The notes beneath the pieces are model-generated. The model was not told the DNA's origin. It did no database searches and saw only the letters and a program-made list of their open reading frames with translations. This document shows positions 32,151 through 62,703 of a DNA stretch of 64,000 nucleotides, piece after piece; position 1 is the stretch's first letter; each line of letters starts with the position of its first letter. The DNA is from Bacillus sp. AFS037270 (GTDB taxonomy: Bacteria > Bacillota > Bacilli > Bacillales_B > DSM-18226): positions 72,630 through 136,629 of the forward strand of contig NZ_NUNF01000014.1 in assembly GCF_002585305.1 (NCBI RefSeq). Reading direction: 5' to 3'. The translations under genes were made by a program, and so were the position numbers.

Positions 32151-32407
32151 GGAAGCGTGGGGACGGTTCGCGTGCTCCTTTTTAATGATTGCTCTTTCCT
32201 AATTCATTATGGCTTCATTCGATCGGGCAGATTTTGTATCGATTGGACCACGAGATCTAACTTCGACTCAATCCGGTAAAGTAGATAGAGGGTCACCACG
32301 ATGGGGAATCCTACTTCGCTAATGAATGGTATAATTTGTTCCACGAGTCTTCACTCCTTTCATATAAAGGTATAGTTCCGAAGCAGAAGAACCGTCCCCG
32401 CGCTTCC
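32151..32407. repeat. REP-bounded yvrJ element, copy A (intact)
   Basis: GGAAGCGTGGGGACGGTTC at 32151-32169 and GAACCGTCCCCGCGCTTCC at 32389-32407 are inverted repeats with one mismatch. They bound an intact yvrJ gene on the minus strand. The same element recurs at 39947-40196, around 60674-61115, 54414-54528 (truncated), 62655-62703 (ends only), 48958-48985 and 63978-64000 (end fragments). Confidence 0.85.
32207..32344 (-). CDS. YvrJ-family small protein (45 aa), intact copy
   Basis: The minus strand has AAAGGAGTG, a 7-base spacer, a GTG start and an uninterrupted 45-codon frame beginning MEQIIPFISEVGFPIVVTLY and continuing LLYRIESKLDLVVQSIQNL. The pattern (short N-terminus, GFPI membrane helix, LLYRIE, amphipathic helix) is that of the YvrJ family. 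It lies downstream of DUF1659 and DUF2922 genes on the same strand, a grouping I recall from other Bacilli; an intrinsic terminator separates it from them. Function unknown, probably membrane-associated. It is wholly contained in a REP-bounded element present several more times here as pseudogenes. Confidence 0.8.
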   Translation of the reverse strand: MEQIIPFISEVGFPIVVTLYLLYRIESKLDLVVQSIQNLPDRMKP

Positions 32408-32430
32408 ACAGGAGAACCGTCACCCACGAT

Positions 32431-32466
32431 TTAAAAAAAAGGCCGGGTTCATGAGAATCCGGCCTT
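32431..32466 (-). terminator. intrinsic terminator of the DUF1659-DUF2922 operon
   Basis: On the minus strand AAGGCCGGATTC and GAACCCGGCCTT form a GC-rich stem followed by eight T residues, eight bases after the DUF2922 stop. Confidence 0.9.
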
Positions 32467-32473
32467 GCGGTTA

Positions 32474-32692
32474 TTATGCTAGTTCATAGTCGGTTACATT
32501 TCGGTCGATGATTCTTGCCCCTTTTGCTGAGGCAAGTTTGCCGCTGCCTGTAGTAAATACGTTAGCTGCAATAATCTGCGCCATGGAAAGTTTCACCACA
32601 TCTTCATCCACTGGCTCCTTTGGATTATCGACGGTGATTTTCGCCGTTTTTCCAAACTCGGTGTCAAATTGTAATTCTAATGTTTTGGCCAT
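32474..32692 (-). CDS. DUF2922 family protein
   Basis: The 72-residue product starts AKTLELQFDTEFGKTAKITVDNPKEP and ends GARIIDRNVTDYELA, matching the DUF2922 pattern of short soluble proteins paired with DUF1659. ATG start with GGAGGTG upstream. It follows the DUF1659 gene by 37 bases, forming a two-gene operon closed by a strong terminator. No catalytic motif and no signal peptide is visible; the function is unknown in the family. Confidence 0.88.
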   Translation of the reverse strand: MAKTLELQFDTEFGKTAKITVDNPKEPVDEDVVKLSMAQIIAANVFTTGSGKLASAKGARIIDRNVTDYELA

Positions 32693-32729
32693 TTATTTTC
32701 ACCTCCTATCATTGGATATTTATTGGACA

Positions 32730-32948
32730 TTAACCGATAATCTCAGAGCTGTCATTGCGTTCCACTTTGTTTAAGTCGCCATTACATAAAACTGAGATCG
32801 CTTGGGCTGCTTGGAACAGTTGGTCAGCTGTTGCCGCTTTCGTTACATTGCTAAACGTTTTAGACTTTAAGATTGGATTTCCTTCGTTATCGATGCCCGC
32901 TTGAAATACCAACCGAAGCTTTGTCGTTTCTAGTAATCCTTGTGCCAT
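32730..32948 (-). CDS. DUF1659 family protein
   Basis: The 72-residue product begins AQGLLETTKLRLVFQAGIDNEGNPI and contains KSKTFSNVTKAATADQLFQAAQAIS, the DUF1659 pattern. ATG with AAAGGAGGTGATC upstream, an excellent RBS. It is first gene of the operon with DUF2922, and the YvrJ gene lies further down the same strand. Function unknown. Confidence 0.88.
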   Translation of the reverse strand: MAQGLLETTKLRLVFQAGIDNEGNPILKSKTFSNVTKAATADQLFQAAQAISVLCNGDLNKVERNDSSEIIG

Positions 32949-33031
32949 CTTCGATCACCTCCTTTCGTCTTATATATATAGTTTGAGAGACTTAAAGGAC
33001 AGGTAGGTCAAAAATATTTTTACGATTCCAA

Positions 33032-33079
33032 AGGCAGAACGCACCTTATTTCAATGAGGTGCGTTCTGCCTGTTTTTTT
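33032..33079 (+). terminator. 15-bp perfect hairpin with T-run before the TnpB-like gene
   Basis: AGGCAGAACGCACCT (33032-33046) pairs with AGGTGCGTTCTGCCT (33057-33071), followed by seven T residues. Its apical part, CACCTTATTTCAATGAGGTG, matches the hairpin at 34901-34920 beyond the TnpB-like gene in 18 of 20 bases, the two differences forming a compensated base pair. It may be the element's left-end structure as well as or instead of a terminator. Confidence 0.65.
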
Positions 33080-33162
33080 ATGATTTCAAATCACTTCGAT
33101 TGATTATTTCTATAATTATCCATATAATCAATTATATAGAATGTGTGTTCGGGGTGAGGGGT

Positions 33163-34587
33163 ATGGCGAAGGAGAAGAAAATACGTTATATAGTAGAGTT
33201 AGATGTACTTTTAGAGACATTTCAACTGCATATACTAGAAACTAGATTTGAAATTGCTCGTCATATCTCAAATGCTTGTAAAGGAAAAATGCTAGAAAAC
33301 ATTGCTCTTATGAGAGCTGATGAAGAATATCAATTATGGTTGAAGAAAGAAAAATCTGAAGTACGGTCGGCTGCACTAGGAGAAATAAGAGAAAAATATG
33401 ATGTCTCTCAAACCGGGGCTGAGCGAATCGTCAAAGAAATGGGCAAACATTTTAAACAAAAGAAGCCTAAAAATTTGAAGCATAAACAAAAAGTACATTT
33501 AGATTCTCATATCGTACAGAAAATTGCCCTTCAAGTTTGGAAGTCTATTTCTGACTATCTTTTCGGAAAAGGCAAAAAGGTGCATTTTAAAAAGTACGGA
33601 CAATTTGATTCGGTTGAAGGAAAAAACAACGAAGCTGGTTTAACCTACGAAAACGGAGTTTTATATTGGAATGGTTTAGAAATGAAAGTTCATGTTCCAA
33701 TGAAAGATAAATACATACAGAAGGCTCTACACGATGAAATCGCCTATTGTCGCCTGGTTCGAAAGACTATTAGGGGGAAAGTCAACTATTATTTGCAGTT
33801 AGTATTAAAAGGTACTCCTCCACAAAAACACAAAACTTGTGATGGTGAAGTCGGATTAGACATTGGTATATCAACCATTGCAGCTGTATCGGATAAAGAT
33901 GTAATGATTGAGGAATTTTGTGATGGCTTGGAAATGATGGAGAAAGAAAAACGGAGAATTTTTAGAAAAATGGATAGGTCTAGGAGGGCGACCAACCCTA
34001 ATAGGTACAAAGAAAACGGGACTATAAAAAAGGGGAACAGAGATAAATGGATACGTTCTAAACATTATTGGAAACAGTTGTTTAAGCTAAAAGAAATCTG
34101 CCGTAAGATAGCCTCTGTTCGAAAAATTATGCACAATAAACTAGCTAATACCATTCTCAATATGGGAAACCAGGTATATTGCGAAAAAATGAATTACAAG
34201 GGGCTCCAGAAAACAAAGTTCGGCAAAAGAATTGGATACAAAGCACCAAGCATGTTTTTATCCATTGTTAATAAAAAACTATCTTATCAAGGATTAAAAA
34301 TTGAGTACGTAAATACGTGGACGGTGAGAGCTAGCCAGTATTGCCATGTGTTAAATGATTATCAGAAGAAGAAGTTGTCTCAACGGTTTCACGTCCTACC
34401 GGACGGAACAAAAATACAGAGAGATTGTTACTCCGCTTGGCTAATTAAAAACGTAAATAATGCAAAAAATAAAGTAAACAGAAAGAAGTGTATAACCGAA
34501 TATTTATCGTTTCTTGAAAACTACAAAAAGACCGAAAAGTTGCTTCGGTCATTAAATAAAAAGTTTATATTTAGCATCGGATTTTAA
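33163..34587 (+). CDS. TnpB-like RuvC nuclease (IS605 OrfB family), without zinc-finger cysteines
   Basis: The 474-residue protein has a Lys-rich N-terminal half and a split RuvC domain: GLDIGISTIAAVS (Asp at about residue 233), VYCEKMNYKGLQ (Glu at about 341) and KIQRDCYSAWLIKNV (Asp at about 421). All three catalytic acids are present. The CxxC...CxxC zinc ribbon between RuvC II and III is reduced to a single Cys in SQYCHVLNDYQKKKLSQRFHVL. TnpB proteins are RNA-guided DNA nucleases of IS200/IS605 elements. No Y1 transposase gene is adjacent, so the copy is immobile or mobilised in trans. ATG at 33163 with GTGAGGGG upstream. Confidence 0.88.
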   Translation: MAKEKKIRYIVELDVLLETFQLHILETRFEIARHISNACKGKMLENIALMRADEEYQLWLKKEKSEVRSAALGEIREKYDVSQTGAERIVKEMGKHFKQKKPKNLKHKQKVHLDSHIVQKIALQVWKSISDYLFGKGKKVHFKKYGQFDSVEGKNNEAGLTYENGVLYWNGLEMKVHVPMKDKYIQKALHDEIAYCRLVRKTIRGKVNYYLQLVLKGTPPQKHKTCDGEVGLDIGISTIAAVSDKDVMIEEFCDGLEMMEKEKRRIFRKMDRSRRATNPNRYKENGTIKKGNRDKWIRSKHYWKQLFKLKEICRKIASVRKIMHNKLANTILNMGNQVYCEKMNYKGLQKTKFGKRIGYKAPSMFLSIVNKKLSYQGLKIEYVNTWTVRASQYCHVLNDYQKKKLSQRFHVLPDGTKIQRDCYSAWLIKNVNNAKNKVNRKKCITEYLSFLENYKKTEKLLRSLNKKFIFSIGF

Positions 34588-34922
34588 TTATTTAAAATTC
34601 AAACCTTTGCCGTGTTGAATCCCACGGAAGAACAGGAAATCTATGACGTTAGTTTTAGAGATCTCTTGTTTGGCAGGTTAAAGCCAGATGCGAATACTAA
34701 ACGGCGACTGGAAAACCACCGGGTTCCGCCATGTCTAAGACTGTCTTTCTTTTGCGTGGAAGAGCTGTTCATTCGCGAATGTTGCATGGAAAACTCATGA
34801 GTCTAAACGGCAAGAATTGAATGATCTAATGTTCTTGTCTAGTAAGGAAAGGGGAAAGTACATGTACCCTTCATTCAAAGAAGGTCTAATCTTTTAGAAC
34901 CACCCTATTTCAATGGGGTGAG
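34588..34922 (+). ncRNA. candidate omega-RNA (reRNA) region and right end of the TnpB element
   Basis: TnpB guide RNAs typically overlap or follow the 3' end of tnpB and stop at the element's right end. Here about 330 bases without a credible gene follow the stop codon. They contain compact pairings (TGGC/GCCA near 34670; GGCG 34703-34706 with CGCC 34727-34730 enclosing AACC/GGTT) and end in the hairpin CACCCTATTTCAATGGGGTG at 34901-34920. The guide would begin soon after GAGGATTCAG. This is inference from position and structure. A 62-codon frame inside (34612-34800) looks incidental. Confidence 0.55.
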
Positions 34923-34971
34923 GATTCAGAAGTTTGTTGTTTGCGTGTTGTATAGACATGTATAGACACGT

Positions 34972-35002
34972 AAAAAGGGCTGTGCCATGGGTTGGCACAG
35001 CC
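34972..35002 (-). terminator. intrinsic terminator, minus orientation
   Basis: GGCTGTGCC (34978-34986) pairs with GGCACAGCC (34994-35002); read on the minus strand the stem runs into five T residues. No minus-strand gene lies just upstream, so it may stop antisense transcription into the TnpB locus or be a relic. Confidence 0.6.
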
Positions 35003-35263
35003 TAGGATTTGATTCTCCAGTTTCTCAATATTCCGCATTGTTATTTGTTTGGATTAGGAAGATGTATAAATAGAGGATTAAATGGCGACCCCTGAAAGGA
35101 GGGGCAAGAGATCACACCTATATGTGTAAAATAGAAGGCTCTGATGGTAGTAGTAAGGAAGAATGAGCGTTATGGATTGTCATAGTCTCCTATTTTATCA
35201 GTTATCTTGGGTTTAATTTTATCGATTATTGGACAAGCTTGGGGGGAGGGAGGAGAATTCGAA

Positions 35264-35464
35264 ATGATGACTAGAAAAGAGTATTTAGAAGCCATTACCT
35301 TTGTTAAGGAAGAAGAGGAAAGATATAAACGATTAGTTCGTTTAATTTCCAATCAGCTGGACAGGGATTTAACAGGAAAAGAAATCAAATATATTCATTG
35401 GCTGGCTGGTATCGATACAGAAGCGTTTGAGGTATTTGAAAAGATATTCGAAGATATTGGTTAA
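35264..35464 (+). CDS. small hypothetical protein (66 aa)
   Basis: ATG at 35264 is preceded by GGGAGGAGAATTCGAA, a good RBS. The product is charged and helical (MTRKEYLEAITFVKEEEERY, then a basic stretch, ending VFEKIFEDIG) with no membrane segment. I do not recognise a family. The 250 bases upstream hold no gene. A short GC-rich inverted repeat (AAGAGG/CCTCTT) follows the stop. Likely a real gene from RBS and codon pattern. Confidence 0.6.
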   Translation: MMTRKEYLEAITFVKEEEERYKRLVRLISNQLDRDLTGKEIKYIHWLAGIDTEAFEVFEKIFEDIG

Positions 35465-35637
35465 GAAGAGGGGGCTGATGAGGCCTCTTTGTTATAGATA
35501 AAGAACATTTGTATCATTTTAATTAACAGGTTAGTATAATTAAGCCCATATTAGGTATAACTGAACATATTTATTTACTAGCGGGTTAAAATTAAGCTTG
35601 GGGAAGGCTCTTAATGAATTGGTATAAAAGTGCACTA

Positions 35638-35788
35638 TTTTTGTAGAATCATAGGATTATAATAACCTGATTTCCTCGGCAATTTTCTTACCGTCATTTT
35701 AAGGGAAATCCATATATAGCGGTCATTACACTGGATTTAATTAAACGTTTGATTAGTATGGCATAAAGGGAAATTAGTCGAAATAATG
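35638..35788. repeat. dispersed non-coding repeat with TetR-operator-like palindrome, copy 1
   Basis: It is about 150 bases long and similar along its length to 50735-50885, with shared blocks such as TGATTTCCTCGGCA and CTGGATTTAATTAAACGTTT. It contains the near-palindrome TAATTAAACGTTTGATTA at 35738-35755 and ends AGTCGAAATAATG. Shorter relatives lie at 39005-39067 and 59155-59222. It may supply the promoter for the gene at 36029. Confidence 0.65.
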
Positions 35789-36028
35789 GAACAAGAATGG
35801 CGAACAACGTCTAAAGTTGTTAGCCTAAACCTTATCCGAAATCTTTTTGTTTGCGGCAGCGAGCTTCCTGGTAGTTTCGTCGAGCACAGAGATGTTTTTG
35901 CTAATAAAAATGTTATTCATTCAGTTAGAAAAAGATTGGACCTGACCCGTATTTTGAAACGAATTGTTTTGAAATCCGTATTTATAACAATTACAATTGT
36001 TATAAGTATAAAAAGGGCGGTTGGGGAA

Positions 36029-36610
36029 ATGGAGAAATTCTTAAAAGGACTTTTGATGGGTCTTTCGATTGTTGCTGTGGTGGGGGTCATTATTGTCGGT
36101 GTTCTAATATATCAAGTGACTAGCAATGGGAGTGAAAAAACAGTAGCGGATACAGGGTCTTCGCTTGATACGGAAGTCGAAAACGATGGGGAGACTTCAC
36201 TTGATACGGAAGTCGAAAACGATGGAGAGTCTTCACTTGATACGGAAGTCAAAAACGATGCCGAGCTTGAAAAAGAGATTACTGAAGGTATTTACATACC
36301 TACAGAAAAAGAATTCCAATGGATTGTTCACCGTATGACGCACCAAAAAGTTGCTGCAGATGAAAAAGATGGAGCGACCGAAATGACACCCGAAAGAATT
36401 GACCAATTACTTAAAACATTAGATGAAGCCGATTATGTCTACAAAGATGTTTATCTAGGAATCTTGAACGAATGGGATAAAGGGAATTTCCAAAATGCGG
36501 TCGAAGCACACAACGAAATTCTTTCCCTTCAAAACGGGACAATCGGAGTTGCGACACGGTTGTTGACACCCGAGGAAGAACAAGAATTCATTGAACAAAA
36601 CTTTCGATAA
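36029..36610 (+). CDS. membrane-anchored extracytoplasmic protein with 12-residue repeats
   Basis: The product of about 193 residues has a short basic start, one membrane helix (about residues 10-31), an acidic linker of three 12-residue repeats (SSLDTEVENDGE and variants; 36-bp DNA repeats at 36158-36265) and a soluble C-terminal domain (EFQWIVHRMTHQKVAADEKDG ... LLTPEEEQEFIEQNF). It resembles DUF6241-type Bacillus proteins, but I am not certain. I chose the ATG at 36029 (GGGG upstream); starting at 35786 would add residues from the upstream repeat. Function unknown. Confidence 0.75.
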   Translation: MEKFLKGLLMGLSIVAVVGVIIVGVLIYQVTSNGSEKTVADTGSSLDTEVENDGETSLDTEVENDGESSLDTEVKNDAELEKEITEGIYIPTEKEFQWIVHRMTHQKVAADEKDGATEMTPERIDQLLKTLDEADYVYKDVYLGILNEWDKGNFQNAVEAHNEILSLQNGTIGVATRLLTPEEEQEFIEQNFR

Positions 36611-36640
36611 GATGCGGACGGAAAATCCTTTGTGAAATGT

Positions 36641-36690
36641 AAAAGAGTAAGGATCCTATCAAGTTGTGGATCCTTACTCTTTTATTTTTA
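36641..36690 (+). terminator. strong intrinsic terminator
   Basis: A 16-bp perfect stem (AAAAGAGTAAGGATCC with GGATCCTTACTCTTTT) is followed by T-rich sequence. Confidence 0.92.
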
Positions 36691-36817
36691 TTTATTATTA
36701 TCCCAGCTGATCCAGCTGGATAATGGAAGAGGACATAATCCCTATTGTAATAGAAGGATATAATCGTTATATAATAAAAATGGATAATAATATGACTAGA
36801 ATGGGGAAGTAGAGTAG

Positions 36818-37690
36818 ATGTTTAAAAAGGGATTAGCCATCTTTGTTGCCATGTTTGTTTTACTTTCAGGATTTCTTGTAGCTAAACCGGTAGCTGCAGC
36901 AAGCGTAACAAAATATGTAACAGCGACTGCATTGAATGTCAGAACGGGTCCGGGAACGACCTACCAAATTGTAACAACCATTAAGCAAAACCAAGCTGTC
37001 ACTGTGTCACAAACGAAAGGCTCTTGGGATCAAGTAACTGTTGCTGGTAAAACAGGTTGGGCATCCAACCAATACCTAACCACTAAGAATTTGGCGGAGA
37101 GGTTAATGACAGTAGGAAGCAACAAACAGTTAATTCTTGTCACTGCTAATGGCTACAATACCTCAAATGCTGAAATTCGTACCTTCGAGAGAAATTCCCT
37201 AGGGAAATGGGTACCTGTTTTAACCACCACAGGCCATATTGGTAAATATGGATTTGCCACTGCCGCAAGTATGCGTGAAGGCGGTAAAAGGTCTCCAATC
37301 GGAAAGTACTCCATTGGAACCGCATTTGGACGTTATGCAAATCCAGGGACCAAAATGCCTTATAGAAAAATCACTAGCGATGATGTTTGGGTAGATGATC
37401 CAACTTCAAAACTTTACAACACTTGGCAATCAAGAAGTAAAACACAAGGTCAATGGAATAGTGCTGAAAACATGAATATCGCAGCCTATACCTATGGTTT
37501 CGTTATCAACTACAATACACAACGAACTCCGTATAAAGGTAGTGCGATCTTCTTCCACATTGGAAGTGGCTATACGCTGGGATGTACCTCCACCTCACAA
37601 ACGAATGTTGTCAGCATCTTGAAATGGTTGGACCCTAATAAGAATCCAGTCATTATTCAAACTCCGATTCAGGAGCTAAACAAATACTGA
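36818..37690 (+). CDS. secreted SH3b-L,D-transpeptidase (YkuD family)
   Basis: The 290-residue protein has a signal peptide (about residues 1-28, cut near VAAAS), an SH3b domain (about 30-92: TALNVRTGPGTTYQIVTTI, GWASNQYL) and a YkuD-type catalytic domain. The active site reads FFHIGSGYTLGCTSTS with His at about residue 247 and Cys at about 256, close to the canonical HGxx...GC motif. It would cross-link peptidoglycan or attach proteins outside the membrane, with SH3b giving wall binding. It is monocistronic with a strong terminator on each side. The RBS (GGGGAAGTAGAG) is moderate. Confidence 0.88.
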   Translation: MFKKGLAIFVAMFVLLSGFLVAKPVAAASVTKYVTATALNVRTGPGTTYQIVTTIKQNQAVTVSQTKGSWDQVTVAGKTGWASNQYLTTKNLAERLMTVGSNKQLILVTANGYNTSNAEIRTFERNSLGKWVPVLTTTGHIGKYGFATAASMREGGKRSPIGKYSIGTAFGRYANPGTKMPYRKITSDDVWVDDPTSKLYNTWQSRSKTQGQWNSAENMNIAAYTYGFVINYNTQRTPYKGSAIFFHIGSGYTLGCTSTSQTNVVSILKWLDPNKNPVIIQTPIQELNKY

Positions 37691-37708
37691 TTCTCCTCGG
37701 AGAAACAA

Positions 37709-37742
37709 AAAGCCAACAGAGTATTTCTCTGTTGGTTTTTTT
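37709..37742 (+). terminator. intrinsic terminator of the L,D-transpeptidase gene
   Basis: CCAACAGAG and CTCTGTTGG form a 9-bp stem followed by seven T residues. Confidence 0.9.
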
Positions 37743-38023
37743 GCAAAATAGGGATTACCCAGGCGGCCAAAGAAGAGAAAGGGACACATTTATGAATTGT
37801 GGCATTAGCCCACGACTGATCAAGAGCACAAGATATTAAAAGGCCTTTACATTAGGTACAACTTTGAGCATACCATTATGGATTTCTTTCTTTGGATGGA
37901 TAAAAATAGCCATTCATGTTTTTTCCACGTAGTCAGGGGAGTGAACGTTTTTTATTGATAGTTTATTTATGGTAAGGTTTATAATAGAAATCAAAAATAA
38001 ACGATACGGAAAGGAAATGGGAT

Positions 38024-38548: not shown

Positions 38549-38579
38549 AATTGTTTGTCACACTGGGAAGATCAGTGAG

Positions 38580-38615
38580 AATAAACTGTTCATTTTAAAT
38601 GGACAGTTTATTTTA
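38580..38615 (+). terminator. intrinsic terminator of the DJ-1/PfpI gene
   Basis: AATAAACTGTTCATT and AATGGACAGTTTATT pair over 15 positions (one G:U), followed by a T-run. Confidence 0.85.
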
Positions 38616-38779
38616 ATTACCAATTACATGGAAAAACTCCTATTCGGAATGATACGAGTTTTTAGTAAGTGCAAGGTTGATCCAGGGTAATAGGATGGAT
38701 ATCATTAATAATTTAACTACGAACCTTTCAATCTTTAATGACTGGATAAGATGAGTTGTGGACAGCTCTCGACATTTTT

Positions 38780-39070
38780 TTCATGCAATTGGGGTGACAA
38801 ATGCAGAAATGACGTGGAAAAGATTGTTTTTAAACAAATGTTTGATTAGATGCGAAAGATAGCGAACTGACAAGAGGGATGTAAGTTGAGTCGATAACAA
38901 TAGAATTTTCCGGGAAATTGTAGTTTTATCTGTGAAATATTCTCACTTGGCTCGACAATCTTTTTTACTAGTTTTGAAGAGTAAAGTAAGAGGGACGAAA
39001 CTTTCAGCTTTTTTAATTAAATGTTTGATTAGTATAGCATATAGGGAAATTTGTTGTTATGATGTCGTTC
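38780..39070. repeat. dispersed non-coding repeats in a 670-base gene-free stretch
   Basis: The interval 38616-39282 holds no supported gene. Two repeat blocks are visible. One is AATTTTCCGGGAAATTGT followed by GCTCGACAATCTTTTTTA (38904-38968), shared with 58371-58430. The other is TTAATTAAATGTTTGATTAG with the AGTATAGCATATAGGGAAAT tail (39005-39067), shared with 35738, 50830 and 59165. A third related palindrome lies near 38821. Confidence 0.6.
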
Positions 39071-39946: not shown

Positions 39947-40196
39947 GAAGCATGGGGACGGTTCTCATGCTCCTTGACTGCTAGTCTCCTAAATCATTAC
40001 GGTTTTATTTGGTTGGGAAGATTTTATATCTATTGGACTACCAGATCTAACTTCGACTCAATCTGGTAAAGCAGACAGAGGATCACCACGATAGGGGATC
40101 CTACTTCGCTAATGATTAGTATGATTCGTCCCGCGAGTCTTCACTCCTTTCTATAAAGTGCTGATTCCGAAGCAAAAGAACCGTCCCTGTGTATTC
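39947..40196. repeat. REP-bounded yvrJ element, copy B
   Basis: The left end GAAGCATGGGGACGGTTCTC and right end AGAACCGTCCCTGTG bound about 220 bases closely similar to copy A. The enclosed yvrJ frame is dead. The right end lies only about ten bases from the cupin stop codon. Confidence 0.85.
39997..40134 (-). pseudogene. yvrJ pseudogene (element copy B)
   Basis: It is co-linear with the intact 138-base copy, but the GTG start has become GCG, GFPI reads GSPI, and two in-frame stops (TAG, TAA) follow the VVQ codons. The AAAGGAGTG RBS is still present. Confidence 0.8.
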
Positions 40197-48953: not shown

Positions 48954-48957
48954 AATC

Positions 48958-48985
48958 ATAGGGACGGTTCTGGTGCTTTTTTTAG
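48958..48985. repeat. fragment of a REP end after lsrF
   Basis: TAGGGACGGTTCTGGTGCTTTTTTT matches the left end of the yvrJ-carrying elements (GGGGACGGTTCTNNTGC). No opposite end or cargo is visible nearby. Confidence 0.6.
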
Positions 48986-49499: not shown

Positions 49500-49913
49500 G
49501 AAGTGGACAAGAAGTTTGTTCTTTTATGGTAAAAAACATAAATGATTTTGTCGTATTAGAGCAGTCTCTCTTTGAATCATTCTGAAATTTTTCCAATAAA
49601 TTAGAATCGGAAACAACATTAGTTTATGCGGCAGCAATACTTTCTGTCATATTAGAGGATGGGTGCCCACCTCTTGAATTAACAGGAATCTGGTTTTTAA
49701 AGTAGTTTTCTTCAAACACAATCAAAATATGGCCAATTTTAGGCAGTTAAAGACTACATATTTTTTATGAGAAACAACTGTCCTATTATTTTCAAAGTTT
49801 CGACCTGAAGTATTTTCGAGGATTTCAACTACGACCGAGTTCTCTCCTTTAAGAATAATACCTAGAGGGAATGAAATAATAAAAGTAATAAGCAGTAAAA
49901 GAGGTTGATTACT
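49500..49913. other. mostly gene-free stretch
   Basis: This 410-base interval holds only the DUF2187 fragment listed separately and the RBS of the following membrane-protein gene. I see no other supported feature. Confidence 0.5.
49745..49850 (-). pseudogene. truncated DUF2187 gene fragment
   Basis: On the minus strand this segment encodes ENSVVVEILENTSGRNFENN and then RTVVSHKKYVVF, nearly identical at the DNA level to the last two-thirds of the DUF2187 gene at 58516-58692. The N-terminal third and start codon are absent and the similarity ends abruptly at about 49850. A partial duplicate, not expected to be functional. Confidence 0.8.
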
Positions 49914-54413: not shown

Positions 54414-54528
54414 GAGCATGGGGACGGTTCTTATGCTTCTTTTTACTGATTACTATTCTCCAGTTTCATTACTGCTTCATTTGGTCGGGCAGATTTGCAT
54501 CGATTGGACTACCAGATCTAACTTCGAC
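54414..54528. repeat. REP-bounded yvrJ element, copy D (truncated)
   Basis: It begins GGAGCATGGGGACGGTTCTTATGC directly after the exporter stop codon and follows the other copies to TTCGACTA near 54528, where similarity ends. Only the C-terminal half of yvrJ (minus strand, about 54469-54528) is left. Confidence 0.8.
54469..54528 (-). pseudogene. yvrJ fragment (element copy D)
   Basis: The minus strand reads SKLDLVVQSMQ, matching residues about 27-37 of the intact YvrJ peptide, and then loses frame. The 5' half and RBS are missing. Confidence 0.75.
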
Positions 54529-54779
54529 TACTAGTGCCTACCTGCCGTTATCCGCTACAGCAGTCAAAAGAGAGATTTACGAAGCATACGTGGGAAGTGA
54601 AGATTATGACCGCTTCGTCATGTTAATACTTTTGGTGGTAATCCAGCTTACAGAGGATTATTTTTACTTTATTGTGAAGTGTTTAAAGGAAAGTATTCTA
54701 AACTTGAATTAACTCAATGTTTAATTTCGCTTTACTTTTTGCAATATTTTGATAAGATAGCAAAAAGGTGGTGATATGT

Positions 54780-55446: not shown

Positions 55447-55557
55447 GAGGTTAGTATATCAAAAAAATTTCAGTGGTTGTTGTTTAAATAAAGAAAACGT
55501 ATACTTTTTTTGTAAACGTTTTTATCGTACATATTGGAAGAGAGGGAGATGAACCAA

Positions 55558-56484: not shown

Positions 56485-56577
56485 TAGGAAAAAAGCTATT
56501 AAATTGGAAGCCTGTTCATCAGTGGAGAAATTATGTAGAGTTATAATTTTTTATAAATGATAAAGGAGGAGAGAGGT

Positions 56578-57417: not shown

Positions 57418-57433
57418 TAGGAGGGAACTCTAA

Positions 57434-58246
57434 GTGGAACAGAAAGTAGTCGTCATAACAGGTGCAACAAGAGGAATCGGCCGTAACACTGCTTTATTTT
57501 TTGCTGAAAAGGGATTTTCCGTGGTTGGAACTGGCAGGGATTCCGAAAAATTAAAAGAAGTTCGAACAGAGCTTGAGAAATTTTCTCCAGATCATTCGAT
57601 GTTCTCTATGGATGTCACAAAGCAAGCGGAGGTTCAACAAGTAGTAGAAAATGTATTGGGAAAATATGGACGAATTGATGTTTGGATTAATAATGCCGGT
57701 GCGTTCATGGCTATAGGTCCTACTTGGGAAGTGAAACAAGAAGATTGGATTAATGATGTCTCTACGAACCTTTTTGGAACTTTTCACTGTGTCCAAGCGG
57801 TAGTTCCTGTCATGTTAAACCAAGGTTTTGGAAGTATTATTAATCTAGTTGGCGGCGGAACGACTGGTACATTTAAATATGGTAATGGCTATGGGACCTC
57901 CAAAACAGCGATTGCCAGATTAACAGAAAACCTAGTGGAAGAATTAGCGGAAACTCCGGTCAAAGTATTTGCATTAGATCCAGGCTTAAACGATACAGAC
58001 ATGACACGTTACCAGCGATATACAGGAGTAGGACAAAAGTATTTAACTGGAATCGAGTCACTATTCGAGCAAAACATAGATGTACCGCCGCATCAGGCAC
58101 CACAGTTTGCCTTTTTATTGGCGGCAGGGGAACTAGATGAGTATGTCGGTCGAGTCGTGTCCGTTTATGATGATTTAGAGCAATTAAAAACAGTTGCTGC
58201 TAACGCAAGTGATTCCGACTTCTATAAACTGCGGTTAAAGAAATAA
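57434..58246 (+). CDS. SDR-family oxidoreductase
   Basis: The 270-residue protein has a Rossmann fold: VVVITGATRGIGRNTALFFAEKG (cofactor loop), MDVTKQ, DVWINNAGAFMAIG and YGTSKTAIARLTENLVEEL with the Tyr-x-x-x-Lys pair. The Ser usually found about 13 residues before the Tyr is not visible; the segment reads NLVGGGTTGTFKYGNGY, so a Thr would have to serve. The substrate is unknown. GTG start with AGGAGGG upstream, close to the aldo/keto reductase gene, so the three reductases are likely induced together. Confidence 0.88.
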   Translation: MEQKVVVITGATRGIGRNTALFFAEKGFSVVGTGRDSEKLKEVRTELEKFSPDHSMFSMDVTKQAEVQQVVENVLGKYGRIDVWINNAGAFMAIGPTWEVKQEDWINDVSTNLFGTFHCVQAVVPVMLNQGFGSIINLVGGGTTGTFKYGNGYGTSKTAIARLTENLVEELAETPVKVFALDPGLNDTDMTRYQRYTGVGQKYLTGIESLFEQNIDVPPHQAPQFAFLLAAGELDEYVGRVVSVYDDLEQLKTVAANASDSDFYKLRLKK

Positions 58247-58268
58247 GTTCAAGTATTATATGAAAGAA

Positions 58269-58313
58269 TACGCAGATCAATCTTTGATACAGAAGATATG
58301 GTCTGCGTTTTTC
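58269..58313 (+). terminator. probable terminator of the oxidoreductase operon
   Basis: ACGCAGATC pairs with GGTCTGCGT across a large loop and is followed by five T residues. Confidence 0.55.
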
Positions 58314-58321
58314 CGTAAAAT

Positions 58322-58440
58322 GGGTGCCTGTCATGCCCCGAATGCAAAGACAGTTGTGCGAAAGCAAAAGAATTTTCCGGGAAATTGTCTTTTTTTCTGT
58401 AAAATGTCTAAATGTGCTCGACAATTACTTTTACTAAATA
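58322..58440. repeat. dispersed non-coding repeat (AATTTTCCGGGAAATTGT type)
   Basis: AATTTTCCGGGAAATTGT with a following T-tract and GCTCGACAATTA (58371-58430) match 38904-38968. Just before it, GGGTGCCTGTCATG resembles GGTGCCTGTCACC near 49071, another short dispersed motif. Confidence 0.6.
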
Positions 58441-58515
58441 GAAGGACAATTGGAGAAACAGGAAGTTTAATAAATTAGTTTAGTGATGTTCGATAATTAT
58501 TGATTGATTAGAACA

Positions 58516-58692
58516 TTAAAGGACTACATATTTTTTATGAGAAACAACTGTCTTATTATTTTCAAAGTTTCGACCTGAAGTATTTTCGAGGATTTCAACT
58601 ATGACCGAGTTCTCTCCGACCTTCTCCACCTTACCTTTAATTCCATTCATTGATACAATATTGTCTCCAACCATTGCTTTTTTCAAATACAT
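58516..58692 (-). CDS. DUF2187 family protein (YkvS-like)
   Basis: The 58-residue product (KKAMVGDNIVSMNGIKGKVEKV, then SVIVEILENTSG, ending VVSHKKYVVL) has the KOW/SH3-like beta pattern of DUF2187. I chose ATG 58692, with AAGGAGTGG upstream; a GTG three codons before overlaps the RBS. Function unknown; related proteins are short and cytoplasmic. A truncated duplicate lies at 49745-49850. Confidence 0.85.
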   Translation of the reverse strand: MYLKKAMVGDNIVSMNGIKGKVEKVGENSVIVEILENTSGRNFENNKTVVSHKKYVVL

Positions 58693-59422
58693 GTAAACCA
58701 CTCCTTACACCCATTAATTGGTGGATTTATAAAGAAATATTGATTAATAGGCATTTTACATAGAAAAAGGCGATGTGTCATAGAAATTGTAAGAGTATCT
58801 TCCAAAGATATGGAGCCTTTCTCATTTTTTTTAGTAAGTAGAAGAGGAATGTCAATGAGCATTTTTTAAAGGTATACTAGGTGTCTATGTACATATGTCA
58901 TCTAAGTTGGGGAGACAACCATTGACATATTTTTTAGAGGATAGAAGTAAGTAATTCAGGATTAGAGCGTAGTGAAGGCGTTTTTAATTAAACGTTTGTG
59001 TAATGTAGAAAAAGTGGGAATTTAATTGGATTGTGTAAGTTAAAGAGAAGACAATCCGAATTTGTGGAAAGATGAGTTTTCGTATACGGGTTTCTCTTTT
59101 CGAACTCGACAATCTTTTTTATACTTTGCAGTGGAAAACTGAATAGACAAACACTTGAAGCCATTTTAATCAAACGATTGAATAGTATAGCACATAGGGA
59201 ATCTAGTCGTAGGGATGTCGTTTCTTGTAAATTAGGTTTAGAACGCAAGCAATCTGCCAATTTTCAAGCATGATTCAACAAGTTTTTTTTATTGGGCAGG
59301 ATTTCGCTTATTAAAATACTCTAAAAAGAAAACCAATACAGCATGTTAAGATTTTATTAAGAATAAAAGGCTATTATTAAGACAAGCTTTTTCAACCCCC
59401 TTTTTTTATAATATTATTGGAT
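58693..59422. other. gene-free stretch with dispersed repeats
   Basis: No supported gene lies here. The repeat blocks ACTCGACAATCTTTTTTA (59105-59122) and TTTTAATCAAACGATTGAATAG plus the AGTATAGCACATAGGGAA tail (59163-59222) match those near 38950-39067. A partial palindrome TTAATTAAACGTTTG lies near 58985. Confidence 0.55.
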
Positions 59423-59466
59423 GCCCTCAAGGATTGTTTTCGAACAGTCTTGAGGGCTATTTTTTT
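59423..59466 (+). terminator. strong intrinsic terminator without an obvious upstream gene
   Basis: GCCCTCAAG...TTGTT pairs with AACAGTCTTGAGGGC (one bulge) and runs into seven T residues on the plus strand. The nearest plus-strand gene ends more than 1.1 kb upstream, so it may end a small RNA or serve the convergent minus-strand gene. Confidence 0.75.
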
Positions 59467-59486
59467 GAGTGAACATTATTCCCGTG

Positions 59487-59588
59487 CTACCATCTGGAGA
59501 AATTCGCTTCTAAACTCATGCTTCTTCTTCTAATGCTATGGCCTCGTGCAGCCTTACCTGCTGCCCGAGCTCTCGCTAATTTAGCCAT
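59487..59588 (-). CDS. very small Arg-rich protein (33 aa), candidate
   Basis: On the minus strand AGGAAGGAGAAAAAAT precedes an ATG and an open frame MAKLARARAAGKAARGHS, continuing IRRRSMSLEANFSRW and a TAG stop. The RBS and an adjacent terminator support expression. The product is strongly basic (Arg/Lys/Ala-rich), suggesting nucleic-acid or membrane binding. I recognise no family. Its shortness means it could be a chance frame. Confidence 0.45.
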   Translation of the reverse strand: MAKLARARAAGKAARGHSIRRRSMSLEANFSRW

Positions 59589-59773
59589 ATTTTTTCTCCT
59601 TCCTAATGCCTTGTTTGTTTTAGCAGGGATTTATTTTATTGCTGTCTAATAAAATAATAGGGTCGATTTTTTTATTCTTTTTAACTGGAATGTTTGATGC
59701 TGGAATCAATACCTGATCTCCAACGACACATTTCACAGCAAAACAAATGATTTATCAAGGGAGGTTTTTATAT

Positions 59774-60670
59774 ATGGAGATAACAAATCCGAAGCAAAGG
59801 ATAAAGATTGATGAGTCATATATTAGCTATCAAAGATGTTCTGAGGTGAAAGATGATTTTATCTATAAAGCTTTTCAAGATGGTTTTTCAGACTATATCA
59901 TAAAGTTTGAGTTTGCAAAAGAGGATTTTATTCATCGCTTTTTTGGACCAGAGGGAAATGAAAAAGAGATTTCCTTCATTGCCTTTTATGAAGAAGAACC
60001 TGTAGGTCTAATTCTTGGCGGTATTAAAGACTATGAAAGTATTAAAACCATGCGGTGTGGAGCGTTAGCGATCAACCCTGGCTTTAGAGGAACTGGCATC
60101 AGTCAAAAGCTTTTTGAGATACACAAAGAAGAAGCCATTAAGCAAGGATGCAAGCAGCTTTTCCTTGAGGTCATTGTTGGGAATGACCGGGCGATCAATT
60201 TTTATAAAAGTCTGGGTTATGAAAAGATCTACGATATCGTTTATTATACAAATAGTGATTTAGCCCAACTGAAAAATGCTTCAAGGAACGTGGAGAATGA
60301 GATCAACGAGATCGATTTTTCTGCATTCAAAAAGTGTATTCAGAGATGGACATACCATATTAATTGGCAGAATGATATCGACTTTTTAGCCAAGAGCTCC
60401 AATAACACCTATTATGCTGCCTATCAAAACAGTGATTTAATTGGTTGTCTTTCAATTAATCAAAATGGAAATATTAGCTTTTTAATGGTGGATAAGCAAG
60501 AGCGGGGAAAAGGGCTTGGAACATTGTTATTACAAACAGCCTGTAATAATCTTCATTTATCAAAAATGTCTACCGGTTTTCCAAATAATAGTTTACTCGA
60601 AGGATTTTTCAAAAAGCAAGGATTTAAAAAAGGGCAACTTGCCCAGTATGAAATGTATTTGCCTATTTGA
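59774..60670 (+). CDS. GNAT-family N-acetyltransferase with two acetyltransferase domains
   Basis: The product of about 298 residues has an N-terminal GNAT domain (EEEPVGLILGGI, CGALAINPGFRGTGISQKLFEIHKEEAIKQGCKQLFLEVIVGNDRAINFYKSLGYEKI) and a shorter second one (SDLIGCLSINQNGNISFLMVDKQERGKGLGTLLLQTA ... FFKKQGFKK). The R/Q-x-x-G-x-G/A acetyl-CoA loop is visible in both (RGTGIS, RGKGLG). Substrate unknown. I chose ATG 59774 with AAGGGAGG upstream; an ATG at 59747 overlaps that RBS. Confidence 0.88.
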   Translation: MEITNPKQRIKIDESYISYQRCSEVKDDFIYKAFQDGFSDYIIKFEFAKEDFIHRFFGPEGNEKEISFIAFYEEEPVGLILGGIKDYESIKTMRCGALAINPGFRGTGISQKLFEIHKEEAIKQGCKQLFLEVIVGNDRAINFYKSLGYEKIYDIVYYTNSDLAQLKNASRNVENEINEIDFSAFKKCIQRWTYHINWQNDIDFLAKSSNNTYYAAYQNSDLIGCLSINQNGNISFLMVDKQERGKGLGTLLLQTACNNLHLSKMSTGFPNNSLLEGFFKKQGFKKGQLAQYEMYLPI

Positions 60671-60733
60671 GGAAAGCATGGGGACGGTTCTTTCTTAATT
60701 ATTTTTGTATTGCCATAATATAATAGCTGTCAT

Positions 60734-60815
60734 ATGAAAAAGTATTTCTTTCTATGGATTGTTTGGTTTGGCGATTAAACAATTCCACATAAGAAATACT
60801 TTTTCATTTTTTTTT
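60734..60815 (+). terminator. 17-bp perfect hairpin with nine T residues
   Basis: ATGAAAAAGTATTTCTT (60734-60750) pairs perfectly with AAGAAATACTTTTTCAT (60791-60807) across a 40-base loop and runs into T9. It may be the terminator of the acetyltransferase gene, or a small structured insertion. Confidence 0.75.
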
Positions 60816-60909
60816 ACCTTTTTGGTCGGAGGGAGATCTTAATGAGCCAGCTCGTTAGCGATTTCATTCTTGTCATGCTCCCTTTAACATGATTGAGCAT
60901 TTCCTAATT

Positions 60910-61049
60910 CAATAAGGTTTCATTCGGTCGTGCAGATTTTGGATCGATTGGACCACCAGATCTAACTTCGACTCAATCCGGTAAGCAGATAGTGGGTGAC
61001 CACAATGGAGGATCCTACTTCGCTAATAAGTGGTATGGATTTGTCCAAG
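60910..61049 (-). pseudogene. yvrJ pseudogene (element copy C)
   Basis: RBS AAAGGAGTG and a TTG start are kept, but a one-base deletion in CTTTACC (now CTTACC) shifts the frame after ...VTHYLL, and GFPI reads GSSI. Beyond the shift the sequence still aligns to the end. Confidence 0.8.
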
Positions 61050-61215
61050 AGTGTTCACTCCTTTCACCTAAAGGCATGGTTGCGAAGCAGAAGAACCGTC
61101 CCCGTGCTTCCACAGTGTTCTTTTATTGACTTGGATAAATATGGACACTAAAATGTAACAGATAACACACTTATAGGAGTGTGAAAATAGATATCAGAGG
61201 GAAGTGGAATCCGAA

Positions 61216-62649
61216 ATGAAGCAATATAATACCCGTGCCATCATGTCATCGCTGCTTATCTGCGGTTTCGTTGGCATGTTCAGTGAGACGGCTCTCAACA
61301 TTGCGATTAGTAATTTAATGGTCGTGTTTCAAATATCGGCAGCTACCGCACAGTGGTTGACCACCGGGTTCCTTCTTACTCTCGGCATTTTGATGCCGAT
61401 GACTGGGTTGCTCCTGCAATGGTTTACGACGAGGCAATTGTTTATCGGTTCGCTGGCGAGCTCGATTGCAGGCACATTGGTTGCGGCGCTTGCGGTCAAT
61501 TTCGAAATGCTTATGGTCGCTCGTGTTCTTCAGGCGGCCGGCATGGGCCTATTGATTCCGCTCATGTTCAATACGATCCTCGTTGTATATCCACCGGAGA
61601 AGCGCGGGGCGGCGATGGGATTCGTCGGACTTGTGATTATGTTCGCACCAGCGATTGGTCCGACCGTTGCAGGTCTTCTAATTGAATATTTAACATGGCA
61701 CTACATCTTCTGGCTCTCTCTGCCGTTTTTAGTGATAGGGCTGTTGGTAGGGATGAAGTATTTGGAAAATGTTACTGAAGTCACGAAACCTCGAATCGAT
61801 CTACTTTCGGTCGTATTATCAACGATCGGCTTCGGAGGTGTGGTCTTTGGCTTTAGCAAGGCGGGCGAAGGGGTTGATGGCTGGTCCAACCCAGCTGTTA
61901 TCTATCCCATCGTCATCGGGCTGGCGGCACTTGTACTGTTCACTCTCCGGCAGGTGTTTATGCATGAGCCGATGATGGATCTTGGTGTCTTTAGGTATCC
62001 AATGTATATCGTGGGACTGCTTATGGTACTTTCTTGTATGATGATTATCTTGTCAAGCATGATTATTCTGCCCATGTTCCTTCAAAACGGAATGAAACTT
62101 TCGGCATTTACGGCTGGACTGATGCTGTTGCCGGGCAGTGCGCTAAACGGCATTCTATCGCCGCGTATGGGGAGTTTGTTCGACAAATATGGGCCGAAGT
62201 GGCTTGTTATTTCCGGCCTCGTCGTCGTCGCGATCATGTTATGGCTTCTCTCCAGTATATCGCCTTCATCTTCGATTGCATTTATCGTCGCTTTGCATAT
62301 CGGACTAATGGTCGGGATTTCTATGGTCTGGATGCCGGCTCAGACGAACGGCCTGAACCAGCTGCCGCCGGAGCTTTACCCACACGGTACGGCAGTCATG
62401 AACACGCTGCAACAGGTTGCGGGTGCGATCGGAACAACGATTGCGATCATCATTCTAACGAGCGGTATGGAGAAGTATATGCACGCATCCCCTGCTCCAA
62501 CCAAACCGGCCGAGATGGCTAACGCCATGACGTTCGGCTCACAGAACGTGTTCTTGTTTGCATTGATTGTAACGCTGATCAGTCTGGTCATTGCGTTTTT
62601 TATCCGCCGGGTCATCGTCCATCATGCGGCGATGAATTCTCTGCATTAA
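61216..62649 (+). CDS. MFS multidrug efflux transporter (DHA2, EmrB/LmrB-like, 14 helices)
   Basis: The product of about 477 residues has fourteen predicted helices. DHA2 features are ETALNIAISNLMVVFQISAATAQWLTTGFLL, LGILMPMTGLL, ARVLQAAGMGLLIPLMFNTIL and GAAMGFVGLVIMFAPAIGPTVAGLLIEYLTWHYIF (motif C-type PAIGPTVAG). It exports drugs or toxic compounds with proton exchange. Base composition is clearly richer in G+C (many CG-ending codons, long alternative frames) than neighbouring genes, suggesting acquisition from another lineage. The start is ATG 61216 or GTG 61204; AGAGGGA lies just upstream. Confidence 0.9.
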   Translation: MKQYNTRAIMSSLLICGFVGMFSETALNIAISNLMVVFQISAATAQWLTTGFLLTLGILMPMTGLLLQWFTTRQLFIGSLASSIAGTLVAALAVNFEMLMVARVLQAAGMGLLIPLMFNTILVVYPPEKRGAAMGFVGLVIMFAPAIGPTVAGLLIEYLTWHYIFWLSLPFLVIGLLVGMKYLENVTEVTKPRIDLLSVVLSTIGFGGVVFGFSKAGEGVDGWSNPAVIYPIVIGLAALVLFTLRQVFMHEPMMDLGVFRYPMYIVGLLMVLSCMMIILSSMIILPMFLQNGMKLSAFTAGLMLLPGSALNGILSPRMGSLFDKYGPKWLVISGLVVVAIMLWLLSSISPSSSIAFIVALHIGLMVGISMVWMPAQTNGLNQLPPELYPHGTAVMNTLQQVAGAIGTTIAIIILTSGMEKYMHASPAPTKPAEMANAMTFGSQNVFLFALIVTLISLVIAFFIRRVIVHHAAMNSLH

Positions 62650-62654
62650 TAGTG

Positions 62655-62703
62655 GCACGGGGACGGTTCTCATGCTTCGGAAGCGTGAGAACCGTCCCTG
62701 TGC
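62655..62703. repeat. solo REP hairpin (joined ends of the yvrJ element, no cargo)
   Basis: GCACGGGGACGGTTCTCATG at 62655-62674, extended by CTTC, pairs over 24 bases (two G:U) with 62680-62703. It is followed by CTTTTTAC, so it also looks like the terminator between the convergent transporter and amidase genes. The arms are the two ends of the repeat element brought together. Confidence 0.85.

What the first reader, a model, noticed from the sequence alone, without database searches (positions are those of the whole stretch)
32151..62703. A dispersed inverted-repeat element carries a YvrJ-family micro-gene as cargo
Seven places share the GGGGACGGTTCT end motif. Read on the minus strand, the 250-bp interior is not featureless. 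It has an RBS (AAAGGAGTG) and a 45-codon YvrJ frame, intact at 32207-32344, dead but full-length at 39997-40134 (lost start, two stops) and 60910-61049 (one-base deletion), and truncated at 54469-54528. The 62655-62703 copy has both ends and no interior. All cargo copies point the same way. This looks like a non-autonomous mobile cassette built of REP-like ends around a tiny membrane-peptide gene, a combination I do not know as a described element. What moves it (for example a RAYT/Y1 transposase elsewhere) is not visible.
Basis: partly seen in the sequence, partly recalled or inferred. Interest (0 to 1): 0.8.

Follow-up and report, generated by a model that had tools for sequence, protein, structure and literature searches.

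The report
Mobile palindromes carrying a captured gene
In a soil Bacillus relative, a small gene from a three-gene operon became trapped between two short palindromic repeats and was copied with them to several nearby places, where most copies have decayed; this suggests that such repeats can carry a gene, although what moves them has not been shown directly.

Summary
The motif occurs at seven places in the window (12 sites with up to one mismatch, 0.07 expected). Four hold yvrJ copies: one intact, two full-length but dead, one truncated. A fifth is a cargo-free pair. The window copies share no flanks.

The reading needs correction. The intact copy is not free cargo. It is the third gene of the ordinary DUF1659-DUF2922-yvrJ operon, with a repeat on each side. 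The six solo copies I placed form one branch with that gene and its ortholog (100/99), so the operon gene is the likely parent.

The ends behave as REP/REPIN repeats of a RAYT (Y1, IS200-like) system. All 16 close RAYT genes found in relatives have these repeats nearby. Genomes with that RAYT have a median of 136 sites, others 11. In N. drentensis JC05, 85 of 131 sites lie within 360 kb around the RAYT. The window holds no RAYT and its genome is not available.

Best reading: a REPIN-like composite whose spacer is a captured host gene, copied locally, most likely by RAYT; the cargo is a passenger. REP-REP recombination is not excluded. New variant of a known kind.

The parts
32730..32948 (-). 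DUF1659 gene, first gene of the resident operon
   Evidence: Pfam PF07872 E 4.8e-25; both DUF1659 and DUF2922 lie upstream of yvrJ in 69 of 79 relatives' loci
32474..32692 (-). DUF2922 gene, second gene of the resident operon
   Evidence: Pfam PF11148 E 6.2e-25
32433..32466 (-). terminator-like hairpin with T-run between DUF2922 and the cassette
   Evidence: sequence read directly; same hairpin in the N. drentensis ortholog L100 and, with one change, beside the solo copy G007 5724949
32154..32404 (-). parent copy: REP - yvrJ - REP within the operon
   Evidence: model R1 235 bits (the model was built with it); shortest end branch (0.016) in the cassette clade
32207..32344 (-). yvrJ, intact (45 aa, GTG start)
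32388..32399 (-). 5' (promoter-side) REP core of the parent copy; a further one-mismatch REP core at 32413-32424
32159..32170 (+). 3' REP core of the parent copy (one mismatch)
39949..40193 (-). dispersed copy 2 with both REPs (cores 39954-39965 and 40177-40188); dead yvrJ 39997-40134
   Evidence: R1 203 bits (a row of the model); lost start, two stops
54415..54529 (-). dispersed copy 3, truncated: 3' REP and 3' part of yvrJ
   Evidence: R1 97.5 bits, model 116-255 (a row of the model); abuts the stop codon of the 52098-54413 gene; no REP seen in the 420 bp after four orthologs (L242, L243, L247, L248)
60675..61108 (-). dispersed copy 4 with both REPs (cores 60680-60691 and 61092-61103), frame-shifted yvrJ, about 180 bp of unrelated DNA at about 60692-60869
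   Evidence: R1 194 bits from 60870 (a row of the model); sequence
62655..62703 (.). REPIN: inverted REP pair without cargo
   Evidence: fold z -9.8; same gene flank carries a cassette in G007 and G046
48955..48977 (+). single REP after the stop codon of the 48066-48953 gene
   Evidence: present in G007, absent in G049, G008, G013, G002, G043, G039
63986..63997 (+). single REP core (one mismatch) at the window's edge

Best explanation
A RAYT (REP-associated Y1/HuH transposase, IS200-like) system spreads short palindromes (REPs) as inverted pairs (REPINs), largely within about 100-200 kb of the RAYT gene. In this Neobacillus lineage REPs landed on both sides of yvrJ, the last gene of the DUF1659-DUF2922-yvrJ operon. 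The two inverted REPs then acted as one enlarged REPIN with yvrJ as its spacer, and the unit was copied to nearby intergenic sites, probably by RAYT acting in trans. The solo copies were mostly not kept by selection and decayed by point mutation, frameshift and 5' truncation. Shown: unit structure, unrelated flanks of the window copies, common origin with the operon gene, decay, and REP-RAYT association and clustering in relatives. Inferred: that RAYT catalysed the movement, the direction operon to solo, and that the window's own genome has or had such a RAYT.
For: Unit: copy 39997 aligns to the parent from REP to REP (82% over 248 bp), copy 60910 from just inside its 3' end, where the insert lies, through the 5' REP (86% over 242 bp); flanks share nothing beyond chance. 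Parentage: 8 of 8 cassette and source-operon rows form one branch, 100/99, among 87 yvrJ rows; parent end branch 0.016 against 0.048-0.48 for w54, w60, w39 and G046_162, and a 0.71 stem for the G007/G046 pair. Other species: end-to-end copies in G007 and G046. REP-RAYT: 16 of 16 loci of the close RAYT (60% identity or more) have exact REP cores within the fetched 1.5 kb flanks (G059 only one core); of 14 fetched loci of more distant Y1 proteins (35-44%) one has a pair, 13 none. REP counts: median 136 in 16 genomes with the close RAYT, 11 in 45 without, Mann-Whitney p 1.3e-7. Clustering: 85 of 131 sites of G007 in 360 kb of 6.26 Mb, 20 of them in the RAYT's own 20-kb bin, the fullest. Architecture: in 880 kb, 68 of 87 adjacent inverted pairs are spaced 20-39 bp; of six spaced 190-229 bp, five are yvrJ cassettes. 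Co-travel: a 5' REP type (outer CAC[AG], inner T[CT]TG) occurs in 5 of 6 cassettes and 4 of 183 other REPs (type chosen after seeing the data; two of the six are orthologs).
Against: No RAYT in the window, and its genome is not held. No clean empty site with both flanks exists for a full copy, so no target duplication or cut site could be mapped. At 3 of 4 dispersed window places a relative has REP-like sequence or a cassette at the same gene end, which also fits recombination between existing REPs. The solo copy G007 5724949 has, beyond its 5' REPs, a hairpin nearly identical to the operon's terminator, found in the 880 kb scanned only there and in the two operons: more than the REP-to-REP unit seems to have been copied there. 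Its frame is open for 41 codons. The parent's G007 ortholog lacks a good 5' REP. G059 has the RAYT but 8 REPs; G004 has 102 without the close RAYT; four distant Y1 loci have one single-mismatch core each.
Confidence: 0.55

Rival explanations
1. REP-REP recombination: REPs already stood at the sites, and the yvrJ interior was spread by homologous exchange, gene conversion or template switching between REPs, with no transposase acting on the composite.
For: Relatives hold REP-like sequence, REPs or a cassette at the same gene ends (window 40.2, 61.1, 62.7 kb). G046 162.9 kb and G007 share the left flank and its REP and then diverge right after the REP. Left flanks are often non-syntenic, so REPs sit at rearrangement breakpoints.
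Against: Shared homology would be about 20-27 bp per end. The 5' REP's outer arm travels with the cassette, whereas exchange would tend to keep the local outer arm. The 54.4 kb site has no REP in four orthologs read.
Confidence: 0.28
2. Segmental duplication: the copies are pieces of duplicated yvrJ operons, and REPs are incidental.
For: A truncated yvrJ 3' end plus a neighbouring DUF6241 gene is duplicated together in G046 (C17 83 and 99 kb), and related truncated pieces lie in G007 (5838, 5795 kb). G007 5724949 carries the operon's terminator hairpin beyond its REPs.
Against: No shared flank among the window copies within 1 kb; boundaries sit at the REPs; no DUF1659/DUF2922 match beside the solo copies in the blastn comparisons.
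Confidence: 0.09
3. Selected cargo: dispersed yvrJ is kept because extra YvrJ peptide helps the host or the element.
For: In N. jeddahensis an intact solo yvrJ sits between REPs about 110 bp from the RAYT gene. G007 5724949 keeps an open 41-codon frame with the conserved second half.
Against: Five of six solo copies of the window lineage whose frames were read are broken or truncated. Between parent and copy 39997 there are 14 nonsynonymous and 9 synonymous changes, at codon positions 1, 2, 3 in 3, 10 and 10 cases, with two stops: not the mainly third-position pattern of purifying selection.
Confidence: 0.05
4. Chance proximity: independent REPs happen to lie beside several yvrJ fragments.
For: REPs are common in this region (0.13-0.56 per kb) and often stand near yvrJ operons.
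Against: REP-to-REP unit repeated at unrelated sites with one origin; five of six inverted pairs of 190-229 bp being yvrJ.
Confidence: 0.03

Closest known systems
REPIN / REP-RAYT (TnpA-REP) systems of Pseudomonas, E. coli, Stenotrophomonas (PMC3116915 and PMC8266576: passages; PMC3733652: abstract, sections 6 and 16, passages)
   Same: Short extragenic palindromes in inverted pairs forming hairpins; repeats flank a HuH/Y1 transposase gene; copy number follows presence of that gene; several window REPs stand right after stop codons
   Different: Firmicute host; core GGGACGGTTCT in the loop and no GTAG tag (GTAG within 20 nt in 15 of 189); REPs strongly clustered around the RAYT, whereas PMC3733652 says members of most families are spread throughout the genome and PMC3116915 finds doublets randomly distributed in extragenic space; some units carry a gene in the spacer
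TIRtrons / TIRYT (PMC3733652 section 16)
   Same: RAYT-like gene flanked by non-GTAG inverted repeats that also form dispersed families of dimers
   Different: The published motif GGGGWSAS (shared by part of the TIRs) is close to but not met by GGGGACGG; no cargo is described in the section read
Mobile insertion cassettes (MIC) and MITEs with passenger genes (recalled; search listing only)
   Same: Non-autonomous ends of a transposon flank a passenger gene that is moved in trans
   Different: Known MICs use DDE-type IS ends such as IS231 (recalled); here the ends are REPs of a Y1/HuH system and the passenger is an operon's last gene
DUF1659-DUF2922-YvrJ operon of Bacillaceae (seen here in 69 of 79 loci)
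   Same: The parent yvrJ is its third gene
   Different: REPs inserted between DUF2922 and yvrJ and after yvrJ

Membership tests
REPIN / REP of a RAYT system | High-copy, extragenic palindrome | tested here: met
   131 and 143 sites in two relatives with single large contigs; 85 in 360 kb. Extragenic position was read at individual sites only
REPIN / REP of a RAYT system | Inverted doublets folding into a hairpin | tested here: met
   68 of 87 adjacent inverted pairs spaced 20-39 bp; z -9.8 for 62652-62706
REPIN / REP of a RAYT system | Repeats flank a Y1/HuH RAYT gene | tested here: met
   16 of 16 close-RAYT loci in relatives have cores within 1.5 kb, one of them a single core; PF01797. Not testable in the window's own genome
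REPIN / REP of a RAYT system | GTAG (or terminal CGTC) tag | tested here: not met
   GTAG within 20 nt outside the core in 15 of 189 sites; CGTC lies inside the loop, not at an end. Hence filed as a RAYT-linked REP-like family, not as a GTAG or CGTC REP
REPIN / REP of a RAYT system | Cleavage or mobilisation by RAYT | not testable with these tools
   needs biochemistry
TIRtron / TIRYT | TIR with GGGGWSAS motif (shared by part of the family) | tested here: not met
   GGGGACGG differs at the seventh base (motif from PMC3733652 section 16)
Mobile insertion cassette | Ends shared with an autonomous element plus passenger gene, no transposase inside | tested here: met
   cassette ends are of the REP family near RAYT genes; interior only yvrJ, save the insert in copy 4
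Mobile insertion cassette | Demonstrated transposition with IS-type ends and target duplication | not testable with these tools
   no empty site with both flanks for a full copy

The most novel reading that the evidence does not exclude
RAYT systems mobilise whatever lies between two inverted REPs, so a REP family clustered around its RAYT continually samples and disperses neighbouring host genes. yvrJ would be a recurrent client: trapped in the window lineage, and again in N. jeddahensis, where a solo intact yvrJ stands between REPs beside the RAYT gene. This would be the first gene-carrying REPIN known to me and a route for local gene capture by a 'domesticated' transposase.
Probability: 0.33. 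Interest if true: 0.75.

Novelty: new variant of a known kind. Interest (0 to 1): 0.55.

Why it matters
[quoted passage not shown] A natural composite with a recognisable interior, a likely parent, several copies and a RAYT in close relatives gives a tracer: the interior marks descent, which plain 25-bp REPs cannot. The clustering of REPs around the RAYT in Neobacillus also points to local, perhaps replication-linked or cis-acting, spread, unlike the random distribution reported for Pseudomonas fluorescens SBW25. For yvrJ itself the finding is ordinary: the solo copies look like passengers, nearly all broken.

Tried and rejected
Exact 21-mer of the interior: 0 matches in genome contigs and in viral contigs. 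Cassette interior against plasmids and phages: no match, so a plasmid or phage carrier is not supported. Rfam: only epsC at gathering threshold. RAYT tblastn in the window: no match below E 0.7. Long but weak model hits in G033 (98 bits), G001 C58 and G037 C53 (E about 1e-4) were not followed up. Partial model hits of 30-60 nt at the 3' end were not counted as cassettes, because the model's right end is itself a REP with a T-run. Segmental duplication was tested and rejected for the window copies but found for one truncated family in relatives. The idea that 5'-truncated partial copies show directional copying was left as an observation: a G007/G046 comparison shows that a site can differ in how much 3' piece remains. 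On rechecking, three statements of my draft were changed: 87 (not 88) inverted pairs; five (not six) of the six 190-229 bp pairs are yvrJ, the sixth being G046 C38 180877-181105 with only a cassette-like 3' tail; and the G007 5724949 frame is open and has the terminator hairpin beside it. Paper searches for gene-carrying REPINs: 'REPIN'+'passenger gene' 0 papers, 'RAYT'+'REPIN'+'Firmicutes' 0, 'RAYT'+'Bacillus'+'REP sequences' 2, of which I read PMC3733652 in part and PMC3390384 only as a listing; the library lacks most subscription journals.
Full report
The observation. The motif GGGGACGGTTCT (up to one mismatch) occurs 12 times at seven places in the window; 0.07 are expected. Read on the minus strand, 32207-32344 is an intact 45-codon YvrJ gene with a good ribosome site. 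39997-40134 has lost its start and has two stops; 60910-61049 is frame-shifted; 54469-54529 is only the 3' part; 62655-62703 is a bare inverted pair.

The parent is a resident gene. Upstream of the intact yvrJ, on the same strand, lie DUF2922 (32474-32692) and DUF1659 (32730-32948). I fetched 79 yvrJ loci (the best 80 of 130 were kept) from a one-genome-per-species collection. In 69 of 79 both DUF1659 and DUF2922 lie upstream within 1 kb; one has a DUF2922 piece only, and nine have neither, four of these within 470 bp of a contig end. So the window's intact yvrJ is the third gene of a common operon. What is unusual is a REP on each side of it. The same locus in N. drentensis JC05 (G007, L100) keeps both flanks, a DUF2922 remnant, the terminator, a degenerate 5' REP and the 3' REP.

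The copies are one family. Copy 39997 aligns to the parent from REP to REP (82% over 248 bp), copy 60910 over 242 bp at 86% from just inside its 3' end, and the truncated copy over 116 bp at 83%. The 1-kb flanks of the six window places compared share only chance matches of 16-21 bp, apart from the trivial overlap of neighbouring flanks; next to the 5' REP, copies 32207 and 60910 also share a few bases (CTGTG). A profile of the unit (built from seven copies) searched in 61 Neobacillus genomes found matches in 59, most of them yvrJ genes without both ends. Strong end-to-end matches occur in G007 and G046; weaker long ones in G033, G001 and G037 were not pursued. Solo full copies are G007 5724949-5725174 and G046 C38 162915-163169 and 179115-179340. 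A tree of 87 yvrJ rows (157 columns) puts six solo copies, the window parent and its G007 ortholog on one branch (100/99), with the parent on a very short end branch (0.016). Between parent and copy 39997 there are 9 synonymous and 14 nonsynonymous changes. Frames of six solo copies were read: five are broken or truncated; G007 5724949 has an open 41-codon frame that keeps the conserved second half but not the hydrophobic first half, and its G046 ortholog is frame-shifted.

Sites in other species. At 62.66 kb the window has a bare REPIN beside an amidase gene; G007 and G046 have a cassette beside the ortholog, with other left flanks. In G007 this copy is preceded by a second REP and then by a hairpin nearly identical to the terminator of the parent operon; in the 880 kb scanned that hairpin occurs only there and in the two operons, so here more than the REP-to-REP unit seems to have come along. 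Left of the 61204 gene, N. cucumis V32-6 has two REPs and no yvrJ, and the other eight orthologs read have no REP in 420 bp. After the 54413 stop codon four orthologs have no REP in 420 bp. Left of the 40206 gene G007 has a degenerate REP, and similar degenerate sequences stand there in G008, G013 and G039; six others show none. After 48953, G007 shares the single REP and six other genomes have none. Between the close pair G007 and G046, one site has a yvrJ 3' piece with REP in G046 and only the REP in G007, with flanks 90-95% alike; another has the full cassette in G046, while G007 keeps the same left flank and REP and then differs. Units and REPs are thus gained, lost and shortened at gene ends. 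For full copies no empty site with two intact flanks was available.

The system behind the ends. In relatives, the same core flanks a Y1/HuH transposase gene of about 262 aa (PF01797). Of the 20 Y1 loci fetched from the first ten genomes, six (L082-L086, L088) have several exact cores nearby; four others have one single-mismatch core and ten none. Among 61 genomes, 16 have the close RAYT at 60% identity or more to the N. jeddahensis one. All 16 of those loci carry exact cores in the fetched flanks, G059 only one; of 14 fetched loci of more distant Y1 proteins, one (41% identity) has a pair and 13 none (30 of the listed matches were fetched as loci). Genomes with the close RAYT have a median of 136 exact sites, those without 11 (Mann-Whitney p 1.3e-7, not corrected for kinship). 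Exceptions: G059 has the RAYT and 8 sites, G004 lacks it and has 102. In G007, 85 of 131 sites lie in the 360 kb around the RAYT, with the highest 20-kb count (20) in the bin of the gene itself; 29 listed sites lie before that stretch, 14 of them in a second cluster at 0.66-0.70 Mb, and the remaining 17 were not listed and should lie beyond it. The binomial p of 1e-71 treats paired sites as independent and is only indicative. In G039, 51 of 143 sites lie before 5.48 Mb (with a cluster at 2.8-3.1 Mb) and 49 more in the 228 kb up to and just past the RAYT at 5.706 Mb; the other 43 were not listed. Where RAYT and a listed yvrJ are on one contig they are often neighbours: 43-216 kb for the nearest in G059, G051, G039, G006, G007 and G032, about 110 bp in N. 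jeddahensis and 1.1 kb in N. dielmonensis; in the other eight of 16 genomes the listed yvrJ genes that I compared are on other contigs, which cannot be judged. That may be why yvrJ was the gene caught.

REPIN with a gene. In 880 kb of window and relatives, 68 of 87 adjacent inverted pairs are spaced 20-39 bp, the usual REPIN. Six are spaced 190-229 bp: five are yvrJ cassettes, and the sixth (G046 C38 180877) has only a cassette-like 3' tail. Two at 100-103 bp are orthologs of one another. One other interior, a repeat of about 290 bp, is shared by two larger inverted pairs of G007 at 70%, but that repeat also occurs away from REPs (window 38761-39069). The cassette's 5' REP has an uncommon pair of arms (5 of 6 cassettes, 4 of 183 others). 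I chose that type after looking, two of the six are orthologs, and one of the four others is the G007 site whose G046 ortholog holds a cassette; it favours movement of the whole unit over exchange into local REPs but does not prove it.

How it works, and what is open. The favoured mechanism is that two inverted REPs around yvrJ served as an enlarged REPIN that the RAYT copied locally, with decay afterwards. The catalysis is inferred: no RAYT is in the window, the window's genome is not held, and no cut site was mapped. REP-REP recombination remains the main rival, and the terminator beside G007 5724949 shows that at least one copy is not a clean unit. A separate association in N. jeddahensis (solo intact yvrJ between REPs next to the RAYT, on another branch of the tree) keeps open a wider habit of capture.

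Comparison with print. PMC3733652 (abstract, sections 6 and 16, passages) describes GTAG and CGTC REPs and TIR-flanked RAYTs, says members of most families are spread throughout the genome, and holds the word Bacillus twice; the passage I saw concerned bcr1. PMC3116915 (passages) reports randomly distributed doublets in Pseudomonas fluorescens SBW25 and REPIN clusters next to RAYTs. PMC8266576 (passages) calls the dissemination mechanism unsolved. I found no paper on a gene-carrying REPIN in the searches named, which cover open-licence papers only; the other papers in those listings were not read, save passages of PMC6006769.

Noticed in passing
window 38761-39069; G007 region (several copies), G046: A second dispersed non-coding repeat of about 290 bp, partly with the palindrome TTTAATTAAACGTTTGATTA (also 35736, 50831, 58983, 59165), about 70-85% alike among copies and sometimes next to REPs.
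   Followed up: no
window 33100-34587 (+): Gene of 495 aa with a weak OrfB_IS605 match (E 4.5e-4, below Pfam's cut-off), TnpB-like, right beside the DUF1659 operon.
   Followed up: no
window 60692-60869: About 180 bp of unrelated DNA inside cassette copy 4, containing a long inverted repeat AAAAAGTATTTC...GAAATACTTTTT.
   Followed up: no
L004 5848-7430 (N. jeddahensis JCE): Solo intact yvrJ between REPs, about 110 bp from the RAYT gene: apparently a separate capture with other REP arms.
   Followed up: partly
G007:C1 5724949-5725174: Solo copy with an open 41-codon frame (second half of YvrJ conserved, first half replaced) and the operon's terminator hairpin beyond its 5' REPs.
   Followed up: partly
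G007:C1 663921-701447: Second dense REP cluster without a detected RAYT, at a place roughly mirror-symmetric to the RAYT region about the contig's start.
   Followed up: no
window 919-1218 and 3721-4020; 49744-49847 and 58514-58617: Two further direct repeats, 300 nt at 90% and 104 nt at 95%.
   Followed up: no
window 36149-36265: 36-nt repeats within the DUF6241 gene.
   Followed up: no
window 8368-8482 (+): epsC RNA element (Rfam RF01735), intergenic upstream of a gene at 8614.
   Followed up: no
L018, L038, L045 (N. dielmonensis FF4): Three paralogous DUF1659-DUF2922-yvrJ operons, each with a REP about 50 bp before yvrJ, suggesting operon duplication after one REP insertion.
   Followed up: partly
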